A DNA stretch of 40,491 nucleotides, from positions 1-40,491 of the forward strand of contig WIXG01000543.1 of the NCBI GenBank assembly GCA_009869945.1, read 5' to 3'. Made by a program: the position numbers and the translations under genes. The notes beneath the pieces are model-generated. The model was not told where the DNA came from, did not search any database, and worked only from the letters and a program-made list of their open reading frames with translations. Of the stretch, positions 8,288 through 31,836 are shown piece by piece; positions within the stretch are counted from its first letter, which is position 1; the number at the start of each line of letters is the position of its first letter. Source of the DNA: Mesaphorura yosii. Lineage: Eukaryota; Arthropoda; Collembola; Poduromorpha; Tullbergiidae.

Positions 8288-9088
8288 TGGACCTCAGATT
8301 GGACAGTAGACAAACGATTCGAAATAAGTTATTAATTGGATTTATTAATATCTTCAGTCTATTCCTTGATTTTTTTTGGAATTTAATTATAATTCTGGTA
8401 TTTTATTTACACAACCATGTAATTCAATGACAAAAAGACTAAATACAGGTACAATTTGAATTAAGCGATAGCCCATTAGTTGCTGAGTTCTTGGAACTTA
8501 ACGTTGGCCTTCAGTATCAGAGCCGTTGAGATGCGCCGGTTGCTTGACCAAAGCTCCCTACCTGCCGGCTTATGCCTATCGCCAATTGAGTAGAATCAAT
8601 TCGCTTCTGACGCCCACTCCTTAGCTTCTGTCCATGCAGCAAGTTCTTGTCGATTCAAGTTTAACTCGATGGGTCGATGGTCCAGATTGAAGCACATGGC
8701 TTGCGCGCCTCTGAGAAGGTATCCTACACGATCCGGTGACAAACCTGGTCCAATTTTGTTTAGACCACCCGCCGAAAGTGCACCACAAGTTGACCCAGAT
8801 CCTTCGGGGTAAGTATGCGGAGCACTCTTTCCACCTACTCAATCTCCGTACGATTCGGCGTATTTCGTAGCTCGATGCCTCCATTCGCAGCCATTATCAT
8901 TGGTCAATGTTCTTGGTGTACAATTTCCCCACTGATGCGTTCAATATAGATTTCCAAGAACGGGAACCATTACTTCGTTGAATTGTATCCGTCTTTGGCG
9001 GCTGTCTCCTCATAAGCGTCCTCAGAGAATGAATTGAAAATTCTTGGCCAAATCCAAAGTCGAATCCCGCTGCTTGCAAATGGATAAT
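8288..9088. other. Intergenic region with an unassigned coding-like scrap
   Basis: AT-rich 3' flank of the GPCR, then a more GC-rich patch at about 8600-8830. On the minus strand one frame is open there for roughly 70 codons and contains LRGAQAMCFNLDHRPIELN and ends ELAAWTEAKEWASEAN. The composition looks protein-coding but I do not recognise it, and a second overlapping frame (8621-8884) is also open. It may be a decayed exon. No intact gene is supported. Confidence 0.35.
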
Positions 9089-9802
9089 TTAAACCGAGCG
9101 CCCGCGCCCGTGCCTTCGAATGGACGCGCAACCGCGTCAGCTTGTCCACAGCCCTCAGCCTCGGCCGACGAGTCGCCGTCGCATTTGGTGTCGCCTTCCT
9201 CAACACCCGATTCGTAGCCTACGCGCCCTCCGATTTCAGCCCGATGAAGTACGGCATGGCGCTCCACCTGCTGCATCTCGTCTCGATCGGGGCGACGTTC
9301 AGCGCTCAACTCACGATGCTCGCGTCGGTGCAGGAGGTCACCTTCCTCGTCAATCAGCTCCTCAGCTGGCCGAGCCCGCGCCCTGCTGGAGCCACAAACC
9401 GGCGAGAGAAGCTGTTGCTCCTCCTCTCGGCGACTCTTTTGGGCTGCGCAATGGGGCTGTGCGTCGTCCTGCCCAACGACAAGCACGTTCTTCACTCGCT
9501 CGTCCCGCCCCGATGGGCGTCGCCGTACAGCCTTGCCTTCTTCACCGCCCTGCAGGCGTACACGGCGGCGAAGTGCGTGGTCGAGACGGGGTTCCTCGTC
9601 TACGCGGGTTTGGCGTACATTTCGACTCACGCGTATTTGCTGAGGCGTGCAGGCTCGTCACCGTCACTTTTGCGCCAGCTCCTCCATTACGCCCTCCTCA
9701 ACATGATGTACAACAGCGCCTTCGGCCCGTATCTCTACCCGTACGTATCTACGTACAAAACCGCGATGGAGGACGGCCTCTTCTTCGCGTACATCGTCGC
9801 GA
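9089..9802 (+). pseudogene. Truncated seven-pass chemoreceptor (gustatory-receptor type)
   Basis: The frame has been open since about 9089 (RARAFEWTRNRV...) and contains several hydrophobic spans: MALHLLHLVSIGATF, REKLLLLLSATLLGCAMGL, YSLAFFTALQAY, and a last one at YALLNMMYNSAFG. Order and spacing match the intact receptor at 10674-11810 through its fifth span. No ATG is in frame before 9244, so an upstream exon is missing or lost. Homology ends at FAYIVAIQ near 9802, where an antisense RibB fragment begins. The open frame runs on to 9849 only by reading antisense RibB, so the C-terminal membrane spans are lost. GC content is much higher than in the neighbouring receptor gene. I treat it as broken. 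Confidence 0.65.
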
Positions 9803-10244
9803 TTCAGTGTGTCCCTTTCGTTGTAGTACCCCACCGTCCTTTGCGATAAGTGGAAAGACGTGCCCAGGTCGACGAGATTGGCTCGCCTTGCTCTCGGGAT
9901 CAGCCAACTGATTAAAGGTTGTACATCTGTCAACTGCACTCACTCCAGTTGTCGTATCCATCGAGTCAGTGTTCACGGTGAACACTGTGCAATGCCGGTC
10001 CGTGTTATCTGCCGATTGGATCATCAAAGGAAGATCCAACTCATGTGCTCGAGCAGTCGTTATCGGACAGCATAAAATGCCCGTCGTATGTCGTACACAA
10101 TATGCAATACGCTGTGGAGTGACGAATTGTGCAGCCATTACAAGATCACCTTTGTTTTCTCGGGTCCTCGTCGTCCAGTACAACCACAATTCCTCCAACC
10201 GCGATGTCTGCAAGGGCTTCTGGTATTGTAGCAAAATTCGCCAT
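9803..10244 (-). pseudogene. ribB: RibB fragment: 3,4-dihydroxy-2-butanone 4-phosphate synthase, bacterial type
   Basis: RibB converts ribulose 5-phosphate to DHBP in riboflavin synthesis, a pathway animals lack. The minus strand starts MANFATIPEALADIAVGG and continues VVVLDDED, as expected for RibB. One extra C near 10165-10170 shifts the frame. In the next frame come ENKGDLVMAAQFVTP, CVRHTTGILC, DNTDRHCTVFTVN, TTTGVSAVDRCTTFNQLADP, RRPGHVFPLIAKDGGVL and GHTE. These are the signature blocks of the family in order. The metal-binding E-x-E-G-D is E-N-K-G-D here, so a catalytic Glu is replaced by Lys. The copy stops at GHTE, about 147 codons into a protein of roughly 210. The length 442 = 3x147+1 fits a single-base insertion. 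It is surrounded by animal genes, so it looks integrated by horizontal transfer. Confidence 0.85.
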
Positions 10245-10673
10245 GCTGCTCCCGACTGTTCTAAATTGCTGCTTCTAATTGCCAATCTATGACTGACTGA
10301 CACATGAAACAATAAGAATTACGTGTTCATCATTTGTGTGGTCAAAAGATATGCGGCATCCTGCGCAGGAATACCACAAAACCTTTGTGCAATCATGTGA
10401 TAAGCATATTTCCATGTATTTGCTTTACTTATCAGTAGAAGCTATGTTGAATTATTCAATCGAATTGCCAAACCCCAAGAAATTGCTTTGCACAAGGTCG
10501 AGGTTGAGCCGGCTTAGTTGATTGAATTTCACCGGCAGATAAGAATCAGCAATTTGTCAAGCAAATCGGTTGAAGCAAATTGCCTTCATAATGCAAACCT
10601 TTCACGAAAAACTCTCACGATTAAACTTCTTGTTTTTATCGACGCCATTTCGCACCGACGACTGTTGAAAGTA

Positions 10674-11810
10674 ATGTGTTCACAGAACACAATCTCGTTG
10701 CTAAAATTCGTGGATGACATCAGCTACAAGCTGTGCTTTCTCCCTTTTCGTATTGTCGTGCTGAAAAATGGCCAGCAGGCGTCTGTCGAGTATTGCCGGG
10801 ACAAAAAACGGCAACTTCTCTGCAAGATCACGACTGCGGGGTCAATCTTGGCCAAAATGGTACTCATTTACATTATTGGGCTGCTCTATCACCTGAGAAA
10901 TCATCACGAGCTGCCCTTGACTGACAGTGTCATGTACTACAGTCTTGCCGCAATCGAAAGCATGGCATTTTCATATCAATGCTTTCTCCTGCTCAATGCG
11001 AGGACGTTTTACGAGATTGAAGTCGCGTTCTTGGGTCTCAATTCAAAATTGCATCTACATCAGCGATCACGGGCCGAGAAGAAGCCTGATCGGATTGACC
11101 TGTTCCTCCTGTTCTTCATTGTGGTCATATTCTTTGTAGTACTCTGCGTAATTCCAATGGCAGTCTCTGTAATTCAGTGGGAAATTCATTTTGCTGTACT
11201 ACTCAAAACAAGGTGGATCATTTTAAATGTGCTGACGGCTATCTTTATTGCTACAGTGGTCTTCTTTGATTGGCTAGCCATCTTTCAGTTTGTTGGTTGG
11301 TTCCTTCTGTATGTTAGTTCTGTTTGTCGGTACCTGAAGCCTCTACGGTGGTCCTCTGGCTCGTCTTATCAACAAAAAGAACAAATGCTTCGTGTATACC
11401 GTGCATTGCAAATCATGAACGTCTTGGCCATGTCACTCAAGCATATGGTGGGCACTTCAATCCTGACAGGAGCCCTCATTGAAATATTCGCCTTATTTCT
11501 TGCACTTGGGTTTCATAAACAACTTGGCCTCTTTACAACGTGTGCTGCTTGCATTATGAGCTTAACGACCATCGTATTTCTTGGTGCATGTATGCAAACT
11601 GCCGGCAAAGTCGGTGAATTATCTGCACGGTTCTCGGAATCTTTTTTACGAAACGATATGGGCCTTCAGAAACATCAAAGACAACGTTTTCGTGCATGTC
11701 GACCTATGCAAGTACACATTGGGATTTTTGCCACGGTGAAAAAAGAGTCTTTTGGATCTCTCATGAGTAATGTAGTGATTGAATCTGTTGTAGACCTCTT
11801 AATGATGTAA
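10674..11810 (+). CDS. Seven-pass chemoreceptor, gustatory-receptor type
   Basis: A single-exon frame of 378 codons from the ATG at 10674; the frame is open upstream to 10518 but without an earlier ATG. Roughly seven hydrophobic segments are visible, for example KMVLIYIIGLLYHL, IDLFLLFFIVVIFFVVL, LLKTRWIILNVLTAIF and ALIEIFALFLALGF, plus a last span ending SVVDLLMM at the C-terminus. There is no signal peptide. The C-terminal motif is CRPMQVHIG, then a span. The separate piece at 21339-21848 has RPSRVEMG at the same place, so the two belong to one family. The insect gustatory TYhhhhhQF motif is absent. Likely a plasma-membrane ligand-gated channel or chemoreceptor subunit; ligand unknown. Its codon use is AT-richer than that of the two broken relatives. 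It lies 0.4 kb downstream of the RibB fragment. Confidence 0.75.
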   Translation: MCSQNTISLLKFVDDISYKLCFLPFRIVVLKNGQQASVEYCRDKKRQLLCKITTAGSILAKMVLIYIIGLLYHLRNHHELPLTDSVMYYSLAAIESMAFSYQCFLLLNARTFYEIEVAFLGLNSKLHLHQRSRAEKKPDRIDLFLLFFIVVIFFVVLCVIPMAVSVIQWEIHFAVLLKTRWIILNVLTAIFIATVVFFDWLAIFQFVGWFLLYVSSVCRYLKPLRWSSGSSYQQKEQMLRVYRALQIMNVLAMSLKHMVGTSILTGALIEIFALFLALGFHKQLGLFTTCAACIMSLTTIVFLGACMQTAGKVGELSARFSESFLRNDMGLQKHQRQRFRACRPMQVHIGIFATVKKESFGSLMSNVVIESVVDLLMM

Positions 11811-22455: not shown

Positions 22456-23118
22456 TGTCTTCTGCTGCCTCCGGTTTTTCAGCTGGTCAGTCTCCATCAC
22501 GGAATGTCCTTGCGATTCTCACATAGGAATTTGTAGCAATGCGTAATGAGTATCCACAAGTTTAATTGTTAATCAGTGCACTTTTGACTTTCGGGATTCG
22601 GTCCACTCACTCCAAGCACAAGCCAAATCACTTACAAAGGAGAAACGCAACTTTTGAGTTTTGTGTCGTCCTCTCCTTTTCTCGCTAAACCGCAAGCCTT
22701 GTCGGCTTGCCGGTTGATGCATTTGCATCGCAAATTACTAACTTCAAGATTAGGACAATTAGGATCACACATTGCCTGTTCCATGGTCTCATCTCGTTCC
22801 TGCCCCCATCTGCAGGAGCGGTGGTAGGCTGACGAGCACGGAGGCAGCGGTCTCTCGCAAGTCCGTAAGGAAACCTCCCCCGTTGCTATTCGCACTGCTC
22901 AAGTCTTCACAAAGCACACGAACCAGCAAAAATTCATTCACTTTGCACTCTGCCTTCTTATCTTATCAGCGAATGAGAGTAGAGCGCAGTCGACCGCATT
23001 CTTACAGATGAGAAGCACACCGTTCCCTGGTGACTGTCCATTCGCCATTTTGCAAGTCCATTCGCAAATCACTTCAGAGTAGAAAACCCCACCGACGACG
23101 CCACAAACAATTTACAAA
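22456..23118. other. Upstream region of NB-ARC/TPR gene A
   Basis: No coding region is supported; frames at 22632-22895 and 22772-23011 overlap antisense and lack motifs. It should contain the promoter of the gene at 23119. No TATA box is evident. Confidence 0.5.
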
Positions 23119-24519
23119 ATGGCATTCCACGTCGGGTCGACACTTGTACGCATTGAACCCAAGTTTTCCTTGCTTTTGATGTGTGCAGAAAATATCAAAA
23201 AGTACCCCCACCGCCAGCCCGAATCCACTTGGAATCACGTCCGGTACAAAGTCGGCGAACTCCCACACGACTATTCGGGGCGGAACTTCGAACCATTTGC
23301 CATTCACAAGCTGCTGGATGAGTTCCACTCGAACTGGTCAGTCAACGCTAACATCGTCTGCATTCGCGGCCCAGCTGGCTGTGGAAAATCAACTCTGGCG
23401 AGGAAGTATGCATTCGACCACTTTGACAAGTACTACTCAGACGTCGTCTGGATCGAAGCACACTCGGTCGATTCAATGCGGTCTTCGTTCGAGGGACTCG
23501 CAGCTGAGCTTAAGTTACCAGCAGAGAGTGATACTCGAAGGCTGGTCACCTCCGTCTACATTTTTTTCAACCTAAGAAATTGCCTCTTCGTCTTTGACGG
23601 GCTGAAGTCGATGGAGGACTTTTTCCAGTTCAGGCCGCAGATTACGAGTCCACTCTTCCAGACTCCGTACTTGCTGATAACGAGTCGGAGCAGTGGGCTG
23701 GCGCCAGATCCTAGAAACGAGCTGTGCATCACCCACGACTCTGCGATAGTACTGCAGATATCCAAGAGAATTGAGAGAGAGAACAAGTCCGGAGCGGATC
23801 TTCTCAAAGCGCTGGCCTACCTGGACCCTGAGAAGATTTCTGTGCGGTTCCTCCAGGCAGTATTCGAGCAGATTGAAACAAACGGTGGCGGCGACTTTGA
23901 GCCCACTCTGGCTCTCCTGCGAAAGTTAAAAGTGATCAAGTTAAGCGTCTCGTCATCAGTCAACATTAATCCCTCCATGCAGGAAGCCATCAGGTCGAGT
24001 CTCACCGCCAAAAAAGAATCCTCCGTGCTTGACAAATTGCGAAACACACACCAAGCATTGATTGAGAAGGAAGGCACTGAAGGAGGCTTGACGCGTGAGT
24101 GCACTGCCCATCGACTCCACGTGCTTAGCCTTGATTTGAAGAGTATTTCGCTGAGGGACCACTTTGACCGACTTCGGTATGATTTCGAGAATCGCCGTGA
24201 GTATTCATTGACACTTTCAATGGCCCAGCATGCACACGCGATCCTCGAGTCACGGTTTGGCGGGAACAAGAACGAGATGACGATTTTCTCGGAGTACACA
24301 ATAGCGTCCTCACACTACCACCTGGAGAATTACACGCAAGCGATTCGATTACTGAATTCACTGTTTCCAGTGGCCCAGTCCGTGCTTGGTAAACGGCACT
24401 GGGCGACGGGCGACATTCTTCGATTGCTACGGAACACATACTCAGCTGTTGGAGATTCTGAACGAGTACGTCGCTACGACAATGAGTACAGAGACTGGCT
24501 GACAAGGCAAGAGTCTTGA
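23119..24519 (+). CDS. NB-ARC/TPR STAND ATPase (gene A, intact)
   Basis: A 466-codon frame. Around residue 46 it has GELPHDYSGR, the usual lead-in before NB-ARC. Walker A is GPAGCGKST (84-92), Walker B is CLFVFDG (155-161) and sensor I is LLITSR (185-190). Only about 40 residues separate sensor I from the winged-helix start (LLKALAYLDPEKISVRFL). The GLPLA motif and most of the ARC helical domain, normally about 100 residues, are missing. NPSMQEAIRSSL occupies the HPLVQ position. Residues ~325-460 form TPR-like helices (YSLTLSMAQHAHAILESRF, AIRLLNSLFPVAQSVLG). STAND proteins of this design oligomerise on sensing a ligand through the TPRs. A cryptic intron ending at tgtgcag (23190) is possible but not needed. 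Three damaged copies lie in this window; this is the only complete one. AATAAA at 24591 follows. Confidence 0.85.
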   Translation: MAFHVGSTLVRIEPKFSLLLMCAENIKKYPHRQPESTWNHVRYKVGELPHDYSGRNFEPFAIHKLLDEFHSNWSVNANIVCIRGPAGCGKSTLARKYAFDHFDKYYSDVVWIEAHSVDSMRSSFEGLAAELKLPAESDTRRLVTSVYIFFNLRNCLFVFDGLKSMEDFFQFRPQITSPLFQTPYLLITSRSSGLAPDPRNELCITHDSAIVLQISKRIERENKSGADLLKALAYLDPEKISVRFLQAVFEQIETNGGGDFEPTLALLRKLKVIKLSVSSSVNINPSMQEAIRSSLTAKKESSVLDKLRNTHQALIEKEGTEGGLTRECTAHRLHVLSLDLKSISLRDHFDRLRYDFENRREYSLTLSMAQHAHAILESRFGGNKNEMTIFSEYTIASSHYHLENYTQAIRLLNSLFPVAQSVLGKRHWATGDILRLLRNTYSAVGDSERVRRYDNEYRDWLTRQES

Positions 24520-29532: not shown

Positions 29533-31073
29533 TTCAGAATGGTTGATGCCAATAAAAAGGAGCATCTCAAGAAACCACGTGACCGAGAGACAGCCGAGCG
29601 AGGACTCAGCGCTTTTGGTCTCGTTTCACAGATAGCGTCGCGGTATTGACTTGCTCGCTCAAAGTTCACAGCACCTTCGTATGCAAGCGGTAGAAAAAAA
29701 AGAATATCGCCCGTCGTCCGGTGTCTTTCGCCCAGCACGGACTTGACCACCGGAAGCAGTGACTCCAGTATTCGAATCCCTTCCGTGTAATTCTCCAGGA
29801 GGCAGTGCGTGAACGCTATATTGTATTTCGCGAAAATCGTGGCCTTGTTCTCGTCAAACCGCGACTTGAGGATCGCGTGCGCATGCTGGGCGATTGAGAG
29901 TGCCGATGAATACTCCCTGAGAATTCGGAAGTCATACCAAAGTCCGTGAAAGTGGTCCGTCTCTCTTCAAATATACTGTGAATATTCAAGTGAAATACTC
30001 TTCAAATCGAGGCGAAGCACGTGGAGTCCGTTGGCGGTACAGTCTACCGTCAAGGCTCCTTCAACGCCCTTCTTCTCAATCAACGCTTGGTGTGTGTTTC
30101 GCAATTTGTCAAGCACGGAGGACTCTTCTTCGGCGGTGAGGCTCGCCCTGATGGCTTCCTGCACCCACGGACGCATGCACACGCTGACCGAAGGCCTGCT
30201 CAATTCGATTGCCTTGTGCTTATCCAGGAGAGCCAGGCTCGTCTCGAAGTCGTCTCGACTTACCTCCGTCTGCTTAAGCATTGTTTCCAGGAACGGCACT
30301 GTGATCTTGTCTGGGTCGAGATAGGCCAGCACTCGGAGAAGCCCCGCAGCGGGTTTGTTTGACTTCCCAACTAACTCGAGCACGTTTTCGTGGACGACAC
30401 GGATCTCGTTTCTCGGATCCGGCGTCAGTCCACTGCTTCGACTCGTAATCAGAAGGCAGGGCGTCTGGAAGAATGGATCTATAATCTTCGGTTTGAACTG
30501 GGCAAAGTCCTCCATCGACTTCAACCCGTCAAAGACGAAGAGGCACTTTCTTCGGCTGAAGAATTTGTAGACGGAAGTGACCAGTTTCTGAACGTCACTC
30601 TCTGCTGGCAGTTGAAGCTCAGCTGCCAGCCCTTTGAACGAGGTCCTCATCTTCTCCACCGATCCCGCTTCGATCCAGATGACGTTCGAGTCGTAGAACG
30701 AGAAATGGTCAAAGGCGTACTTCCGACCGAGCGTTGATTTCCCACAACCAGCCGGTCCACTGACGCAGACGATGTTGGTATCGACGAACCGGTTCGAGTG
30801 GAACTCACCCAGCCGCTCGTGAGTGGCGGCTGGCTCGGAGTCTCGCCCGGTGAAATTGTGTGGTAATTCGCTCACTTTGTAGCAGACTTGATTCGAAGTG
30901 GATTTGGGCAGTCTCACGGTGGGATAAATGATTCCAGGTCGATGCGCGGTACATTTTGCAATGCACAAGACGACCAACTTTGACCGGCCGCCGCGAGCCG
31001 TCAAGTTGACGCAGAACAATGGGGTTTGCATCACTGGATTGCCTATAGTCTGGGCTCTCCAACGACACCTCAT
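29533..31073 (-). pseudogene. NB-ARC/TPR copy B, one in-frame stop
   Basis: The first ATG in frame is at 31073. The lead-in is YKVSELPHNFTGRDSEP, Walker A GPAGCGKSTLGRKYAF, Walker B LFVFDGLKSMEDF and sensor I LLITSRSSG. The same short stretch as in gene A leads into VLAYLDPDKITVPFLE, so B shares the missing GLPLA region. The frame is clean until a TGA at 29967-29969, which lies in about 24 extra bases between two copies of ctcttcaaat (29963-29972, 29998-30007). After it the same frame continues with TPR sequence (REYSSALSIAQHAHAIL, EGIRILESLLPVVKSVLG). A truncated product of about 370 residues lacking TPRs could still be made. The C-terminal tail after NFERASQYRDA diverges. AATAAA lies near 29535. 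Confidence 0.75.
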
Positions 31074-31169
31074 TTGGGTGGGATCATCATAGAACCCCAC
31101 CCCCCAAAATGGCGTCCACCCCAAATTCGCGTCTCCATTTCTCCTCCACCCCGAAAAAGTGCACACTGC

Positions 31170-31836
31170 AAATTCAACACAGGGTAGTCCGGGTCATGCA
31201 CTCCTATGCAAAATCCGAAACTGCACTCTGATGGAGCTGACGAGAAATTCAATCTCAAAGTTGGCAGTTAACTTAGGAAATTTAACATTGTGGTAAGTGC
31301 AAAATGTGATTTTTTAACTACTTGTAATATCTCTGTGGACGAATCATTTTCATGTTTTTCTAAGCAATTCTGATATTTTTATTGTAGTAACTAATTAATT
31401 ACGTATATTGTAGTTTAAATGTACTGATTGTGTCTCATTCTATTGTTCATTTTGTTACAACGCTCTATTAGTTTGATTGCAAGTAATTAATAAAAATACC
31501 AATTGTGATTTCCCTACCAATTTGGCACATAAGCGAATTATTTTGGCAACAAATGGCAGCTAAAAATTGTAAAAATTGGCACAGAATTGCGAAAAATTGT
31601 AAACGTTCTCTCTGAAAACCTCAATGGTCATTACACTAGTTGTTGTTGCTCACAATCACTGTTCACCGACCATTGTAGCACCTTTCTTTTGTTTATCACT
31701 GATCGTTATCTCAGAATAGTAAAACAAGAAAATTGAAACCATTAAGCGACTCGATGTGCTTTGTAGATTTGATAAATAAAAAAACAACTGATAAGAACTG
31801 ATAAGAGATTCTTCCTCCATTGCTTGTTTATTCTGT
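31170..31836. other. Intergenic region, AT-rich, with GATAAG words
   Basis: No gene. The part nearest 31780-31810 has ctgataagaactgataagag, a tandem pair of GATA-factor-like sites just past the 3' end of the midkine-like gene. Confidence 0.5.

What the first reader, a model, noticed from the sequence alone, without database searches (positions are those of the whole stretch)
9803..10244. Bacterial-type RibB fragment in an animal gene neighbourhood
The block order DDED, GDLVMAAQF, VRHTTG, TTTGVSA, RPGHVFPL and GHTE is diagnostic for DHBP synthase, a riboflavin-pathway enzyme that animals lack. It sits between chemoreceptor genes, carries a single +1 frameshift and a Glu-to-Lys change in the metal-binding E-x-E-G-D, and is cut off at GHTE. 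That argues for an integrated and decaying horizontal transfer rather than contamination, and a working copy may exist elsewhere in the genome.
Basis: partly seen in the sequence, partly recalled or inferred. Interest (0 to 1): 0.85.

Follow-up and report, generated by a model that had tools for sequence, protein, structure and literature searches.

The report
Dead riboflavin-enzyme gene in springtail-like genome
A broken copy of a vitamin B2 synthesis gene that animals normally lack sits fused to a broken animal gene in what looks like a springtail genome, one of three damaged copies found there, and none of the other vitamin B2 synthesis genes that were looked for was found.

Summary
Minus-strand 9803-10244 encodes roughly the first three quarters of a DHBP synthase (RibB; PF00926, E 3.7e-45) with one frameshift, a Glu-to-Lys change and an abrupt end after GHTE. 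It is a dead fragment. Its lost 3' end lies 4 bases from the lost 3' end of a multi-copy animal gene whose relatives run about 100-110 codons further: a rearrangement breakpoint (or assembly chimera), not a clean insertion. The 93-Mb assembly, springtail-like by one gene tree, holds three ribB places: this one, a full-length copy with one in-frame stop (C599) and an N-terminal stub (C1089). Four other riboflavin-pathway domains were not found; riboflavin kinase was. Between copies synonymous sites are saturated and protein changes far fewer, so the genes were long under selection, in the animal or in donors. Both testable copies lie in a partly eukaryotic clade (99/90) of mostly unnamed proteins; 'bacterial-type' is not supported, but its sister group includes a bacterium and a fungal source is not rejected. 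One or several transfers cannot be told apart. No reads were available to verify the junction. New member of a known kind: horizontally acquired riboflavin genes in arthropods.

The parts
10164..10244 (-). RibB N-terminus with its own ATG (MANFATIPEALADIAVGGIVVVLDDED), read in the first frame
   Evidence: similar start MSTFATIPKA in the C1089 copy
9803..10168 (-). RibB main piece in the shifted frame (conserved from RENKGD to GHTE); pseudogene, about the last quarter of the protein missing
   Evidence: PF00926 E 3.7e-45; genome search
9799..9802 (.). junction: 4 bases not assignable to either the truncated animal gene or the RibB fragment
   Evidence: DNA match to the C449 relative ends at 9798; the codon for the E of GHTE is 9803-9805
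9113..9798 (+). 3'-truncated copy of a multi-copy membrane-protein gene (chemoreceptor-like by eye; no Pfam match), 86% DNA identity to contig C449
   Evidence: relatives continue 111 codons (C320, C427) or 98 codons (C403); C449 continues at DNA level (78% to C320) but its own frame is broken
10518..11810 (+). next chemoreceptor-like ORF on the 5' side of the RibB fragment (identity by eye; hydrophobic segments only)
   Evidence: no Pfam match

Best explanation
A gene for DHBP synthase (ribulose 5-phosphate to 3,4-dihydroxy-2-butanone 4-phosphate plus formate) entered the genome of this arthropod, most likely a springtail, by horizontal transfer from a microbe, probably a eukaryotic one. Three descendants or separate arrivals remain. 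The window copy is dead: a rearrangement joined it, cut after GHTE, to a cut copy of a duplicated animal membrane-protein gene, with the 3' ends of both lost, and it also has a frameshift and a Glu-to-Lys change at a near-invariant position. It does nothing now (inferred from its anatomy). Shown: identity, damage, shared breakpoint as assembled, three places in the genome, four other pathway domains not found. Inferred: the transfer, the non-bacterial source, the loss of function, and that the joint is real and not an assembly error.
For: PF00926 match. Three places in 93 Mb, with either query. The window fragment abuts, 4 bases away, a gene with relatives on four other contigs of the same genome at E below 1e-28 (C449, C320, C427, C403); both partners are cut at the same point and neither missing tail is found in the window; a DNA search with the C449 tail finds only C449 and C320, so no lost tail of the window gene is seen elsewhere. 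No matches for GTP cyclohydrolase II, RibD_C, lumazine synthase or riboflavin synthase domains, so no riboflavin-making contaminant shows up, while riboflavin kinase is found in two pieces 59 bases apart. RibB copies differ at saturated synonymous sites (pS 0.88, 0.85, 0.77) but pN is 0.30, 0.16, 0.23 over 119, 34, 42 codons. The attached animal gene differs from C449 by dS 0.09 and 0.16 with dN/dS 0.88 and 0.59 over 159 and 67 codons, as expected of young, weakly constrained duplicates. Both testable copies sit in one clade, 99/90. Host: an ABC transporter of the window falls in a set of six rows with Allacma, Folsomia and Orchesella, SH-aLRT 99.
Against: No reads: the joint could be an assembly chimera, and a double truncation at one point is also what a chimera looks like. 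The C599 stop could be a consensus error. The donor is unresolved: C543 or C599 with fungi is not rejected (p-AU 0.13, 0.32), and the sister group of the clade (83/78) includes the bacterium Geodermatophilus. Host identity rests on one gene with a very long branch, odd composition and a long-branch warning. C449 is itself damaged, so the dN/dS value cannot say which copy lost constraint; against C320 it is 0.20 over 216 codons. Purifying selection on RibB may have acted in donors and not in the animal.
Confidence: 0.78

Rival explanations
1. Separate, recent transfers: each copy came from a different microbe and was dead or dying on arrival; the signs of selection come from the donors.
For: On the clean tree C599 joins A. 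avenae and P0012 (91/77) and the window copy lies in a set of 9 with P0004 and others (97/85), not with C599; synonymous sites between copies are saturated; the 43-residue C1089 piece is 72% identical to A. avenae and 67% (36 columns) to the window copy.
Against: Holding window and C599 copies together costs only 0.57 log-likelihood units, p-AU 0.486; window and C1089 copies share a similar start and a QRIA[YF]CVR stretch.
Confidence: 0.4
2. Assembly chimera or contamination: a protist or other cobiont RibB was misjoined to host sequence.
For: Both partners end at the same point; no read data; contig C1089 is only 10.8 kb.
Against: Three separate contigs carry damaged copies; the 10-kb stretch around the C599 copy also holds ORFs that look like chemoreceptors by eye (no Pfam family over cut-off; one of them checked for hydrophobic segments); none of four further riboflavin-pathway domains is in the assembly, which a riboflavin-making contaminant would tend to bring.
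Confidence: 0.1
3. Working gene, wrongly scored as dead: the C599 copy is functional (polymorphic or miscalled stop) and the animal uses the product, for example to complement a symbiont.
For: C599 is full length with the acidic loop, RPGH and GHTE motifs kept and a single stop.
Against: Stop codon as assembled; none of four other riboflavin-making domains found in the assembly; no expression data.
Confidence: 0.2
4. Old eukaryotic gene kept by this lineage and lost by other animals (no transfer).
For: Nearest clade includes a EukProt protein and a protein named as a nematode's.
Against: It would also need very many losses (inference).
Confidence: 0.04

Closest known systems
DHBP synthase (RibB / RIB3; Pfam PF00926)
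   Same: Motifs up to GHTE are present. By residue spacing the window keeps the positions of R34, E35, D39, H133, R147, H150 and T151 named for the Zymoseptoria active site (PMC12268802, passages; the mapping is mine)
   Different: Second Glu of the acidic loop is Lys, one frameshift, about the last quarter missing
Horizontally acquired riboflavin genes of Hemiptera: ribA and ribD in Planococcus citri, ribC in Pachypsylla venusta (PMC5664097, passages seen)
   Same: Foreign riboflavin-pathway genes in an arthropod nucleus; the psyllid ribC is described there as the single riboflavin locus of its holobiont and a possible vestige of a lost partnership
   Different: Different enzyme (ribB), probably a springtail, source probably not bacterial, all three copies damaged as assembled
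Springtail beta-lactam synthesis genes gained by horizontal transfer, also in the nematode Plectus sambesii (PMC10531068, passages seen)
   Same: Soil arthropod with foreign metabolic genes and a parallel soil nematode
   Different: [quoted passage not shown] here only broken ribB copies are seen

Membership tests
DHBP synthase (PF00926) by descent | Profile match above the curated cut-off | tested here: met
   154.2 bits against 26.4
DHBP synthase (PF00926) by descent | Acidic loop R-E-x-E-G-D | tested here: not met
   R-E-N-K-G-D in the window; Glu at that place in 309 of 316 relatives, Leu in 1, no pattern match in 6. C599 and C1089 keep E
DHBP synthase as a working enzyme | One open frame over about 190-210 residues including the C-terminal part | tested here: not met
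   Frameshift and loss after GHTE in the window; in-frame TGA in C599; stub in C1089
Riboflavin biosynthesis pathway | GTP cyclohydrolase II, RibD_C, lumazine synthase and riboflavin synthase domains in the genome | tested here: not met
   0 matches in this genome for PF00925, PF01872, PF00885, PF00677; control PF01687 found. The separate RibD deaminase domain was not searched
Horizontal transfer into an animal | Foreign gene physically joined to host genes | tested here: met
   Adjacent to a truncated member of a gene family with members on other contigs of the same assembly, as assembled
Horizontal transfer into an animal | Junction supported by reads or by other individuals | not testable with these tools
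   No reads held
Bacterial origin | Groups inside bacteria in a tree | tested here: inconclusive
Fungal origin | Groups with fungi in a tree | tested here: inconclusive
   Not on the best tree, but not rejected, p-AU 0.13 and 0.32

The most novel reading that the evidence does not exclude
DHBP synthase was acquired by springtails (and perhaps, in parallel, by soil nematodes such as Aphelenchoides avenae) from a soil eukaryote, worked for a long time in the animal as a lone riboflavin-pathway enzyme, for example filling a gap in a symbiont's pathway, and is now being lost in this lineage with all copies caught at different stages of decay.
Probability: 0.25. Interest if true: 0.65.

Novelty: new member of a known kind. 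Interest (0 to 1): 0.45.

Why it matters
If confirmed it adds ribB to the riboflavin genes reported in arthropod nuclei. A lone pathway gene in decay could be a testable trace of a past metabolic partnership, and three copies at different stages of damage may make the timing measurable.

Tried and rejected
Rejected: chance match (E 3.7e-45). Rejected: clean insertion into the membrane-protein gene, because its tail is not found in the window. Not supported: duplication of ribB together with its neighbours; in three of the four possible pairings tested, neighbouring ORFs of C599 show one 28-residue weak match (E 2e-4) or none to those of the window (the pairing of window 9088-9849 with L004:680-2047 was not run, though no C599 match is among the 21). 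Rejected: the reading that Rotaria and Oppiella are the nearest hosts; their top scores come from a doubled ATP-binding domain (by eye). Led nowhere: no COX1 match in the assembly; PMC13389597 and PMC5490193 have no occurrence of riboflavin or butanone in the main text (find). The 2-residue insertion shared by window and C599 is not diagnostic: of 316 relatives 6 have it (one, P0012, in the clade), 160 have the shorter form and 150 did not match the pattern. A hAT/BED-like reading of the C1089 frame after the RibB stub is by eye only; Pfam does not confirm it.

Superseded results: (protein table) and 73 read some rows from alignment files with gap signs; tree and tests were redone on clean, trimmed rows and only those are relied on. 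From I use only the junction strings and the C599 tail search. One search had favoured the window and C599 copies together by 6.08 log units; on clean rows they are 0.57 worse together. Rows of the tree were chosen by hand: the 12 'clade' rows after the fast tree of 239 rows, 10 fungi, 24 others and 20 of 80 prokaryotic loci; the C1089 piece was left out as too short.

Full report
What is there. On the minus strand the window holds a start codon at 10244 and MANFATIPEALADIAVGGIVVVLDDED, then, after a change of frame, RENKGDLVMAAQF down to GHTE at 9803. Pfam scores the main piece as DHBP synthase, 154.2 bits, E 3.7e-45; 17 distinct solved sequences match, 15 named DHBP synthase and 2 RibBA. The Lys replaces the second Glu of the acidic loop (Glu in 309 of 316 relatives); in the Zymoseptoria structure the metal ions are held by E35, by spacing the first Glu, and H150 (PMC12268802, passages of section 18), so 'metal-binding' fits the loop rather than that residue.

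The joint. The + strand ORF (9088-9849) belongs to a multi-copy family: 21 matches in this genome, itself included. DNA of the window from 9113 to 9798 is 86% identical to a relative on contig C449. Relatives on C320 and C427 run on for 111 codons and the one on C403 for 98; C449 runs on at DNA level, 78% to C320, although its own frame is broken. In the window this tail is missing, four bases follow, and then the RibB fragment begins with its own tail missing. A DNA search with the C449 tail finds only C449 and C320, and the RibB tail is not in the window. Both genes are therefore cut at the same point, which reads as a rearrangement breakpoint or, if unlucky, as an assembly chimera. The family looks like chemoreceptors by eye, but Pfam gives no family over its cut-off for the members tested.

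Other copies. Family and protein searches of the 93-Mb assembly give the same three places. C599:12566-13144 is full length (profile 2-190 of 191) with one in-frame TGA. C1089 holds only the N-terminal part, itself in two frames. GTP cyclohydrolase II, RibD_C, lumazine synthase and riboflavin synthase domains give no match here (the same searches rang in 10, 14, 14 and 11 of 14 control genomes), while riboflavin kinase is found as two pieces separated by 59 bases. The RibD deaminase domain was not searched. On this evidence the animal cannot make riboflavin with these genes (inference).

History. Between copies synonymous sites are saturated (pS 0.88, 0.85, 0.77 over 119, 34 and 42 codons) while pN is 0.30, 0.16 and 0.23. 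The RibB lines were thus long under selection, either in the animal or in donors. The attached animal gene is a young duplicate: to C449 dS is 0.09 and 0.16 and dN/dS 0.88 and 0.59 (159 and 67 codons); to C320 dS is 0.92 and dN/dS 0.20 (216 codons). As C449 is damaged too, the ratio does not say which copy lost constraint. The joint is likely young (inference).

Origin. The best hits of the C599 copy are an Aphelenchoides avenae protein (58%), then mixed fungi, bacteria and unnamed proteins; the window copy's best hit is an unnamed JGI protein, P0041 (60%; 64% over 120 columns). On a clean tree of 68 hand-chosen rows both copies lie in a clade of 14 with support 99/90. The other 12 members include A. 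avenae, a EukProt protein and a protein with a GTP cyclohydrolase II piece ahead of DHBP synthase (P0008); the A. avenae protein ends in a weak, sub-threshold lumazine-synthase match (E 0.0099). Against it: the sister group on that tree (83/78) includes Geodermatophilus, a bacterium. Fungi are not rejected (p-AU 0.13 and 0.32). One transfer or more cannot be told apart (0.57 log units, p-AU 0.486).

Host. A window ABC transporter groups with the springtails Allacma, Folsomia and Orchesella (set of six rows of 26, SH-aLRT 99; very long branch and a program warning about it).

Known parallels. Planococcus citri has nuclear ribA and ribD, and Pachypsylla venusta a lone ribC seen as a possible vestige of a lost partner (PMC5664097, passages). 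Springtails and a soil nematode share beta-lactam genes (PMC10531068, passages). The present case is the same kind of thing with another enzyme and host.

Verdict. An integrated, decayed DHBP synthase fragment, confidence about 0.78; the remaining doubt is mostly the unverified joint. Interest is moderate: an example of horizontal gain and loss of a vitamin gene, with a more surprising history possible but not shown.

Noticed in passing
window 23083-24519 (+) and 29967-31193 (-): Two NB-ARC/NACHT-type STAND genes, 65% identical over 319 residues (Pfam); further broken relatives near 15.6-16.5 kb and 28.5-30 kb by eye.
   Followed up: partly
L005:714-2442 (contig C1089), minus strand: Remnant of a nonribosomal peptide synthetase in more than one frame (PP-binding, AMP-binding C-terminal; Condensation below its cut-off), about 2.5 kb from the RibB stub.
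   Followed up: partly
protein P0002 (Aphelenchoides avenae): RibB with a C-terminal extension that weakly matches lumazine synthase (E 0.0099, below cut-off), on a 3.6-kb contig; a possible second animal case or a contaminant.
   Followed up: partly
protein P0008 (unnamed, JGI): GTP cyclohydrolase II piece placed ahead of DHBP synthase, the reverse of the order that I recall for bacterial RibBA.
   Followed up: no
proteins P0239 (Rotaria) and P0240 (Oppiella nova): Doubled ATP-binding domain in database proteins that inflates their scores (by eye); perhaps assembly or gene-model errors.
   Followed up: no
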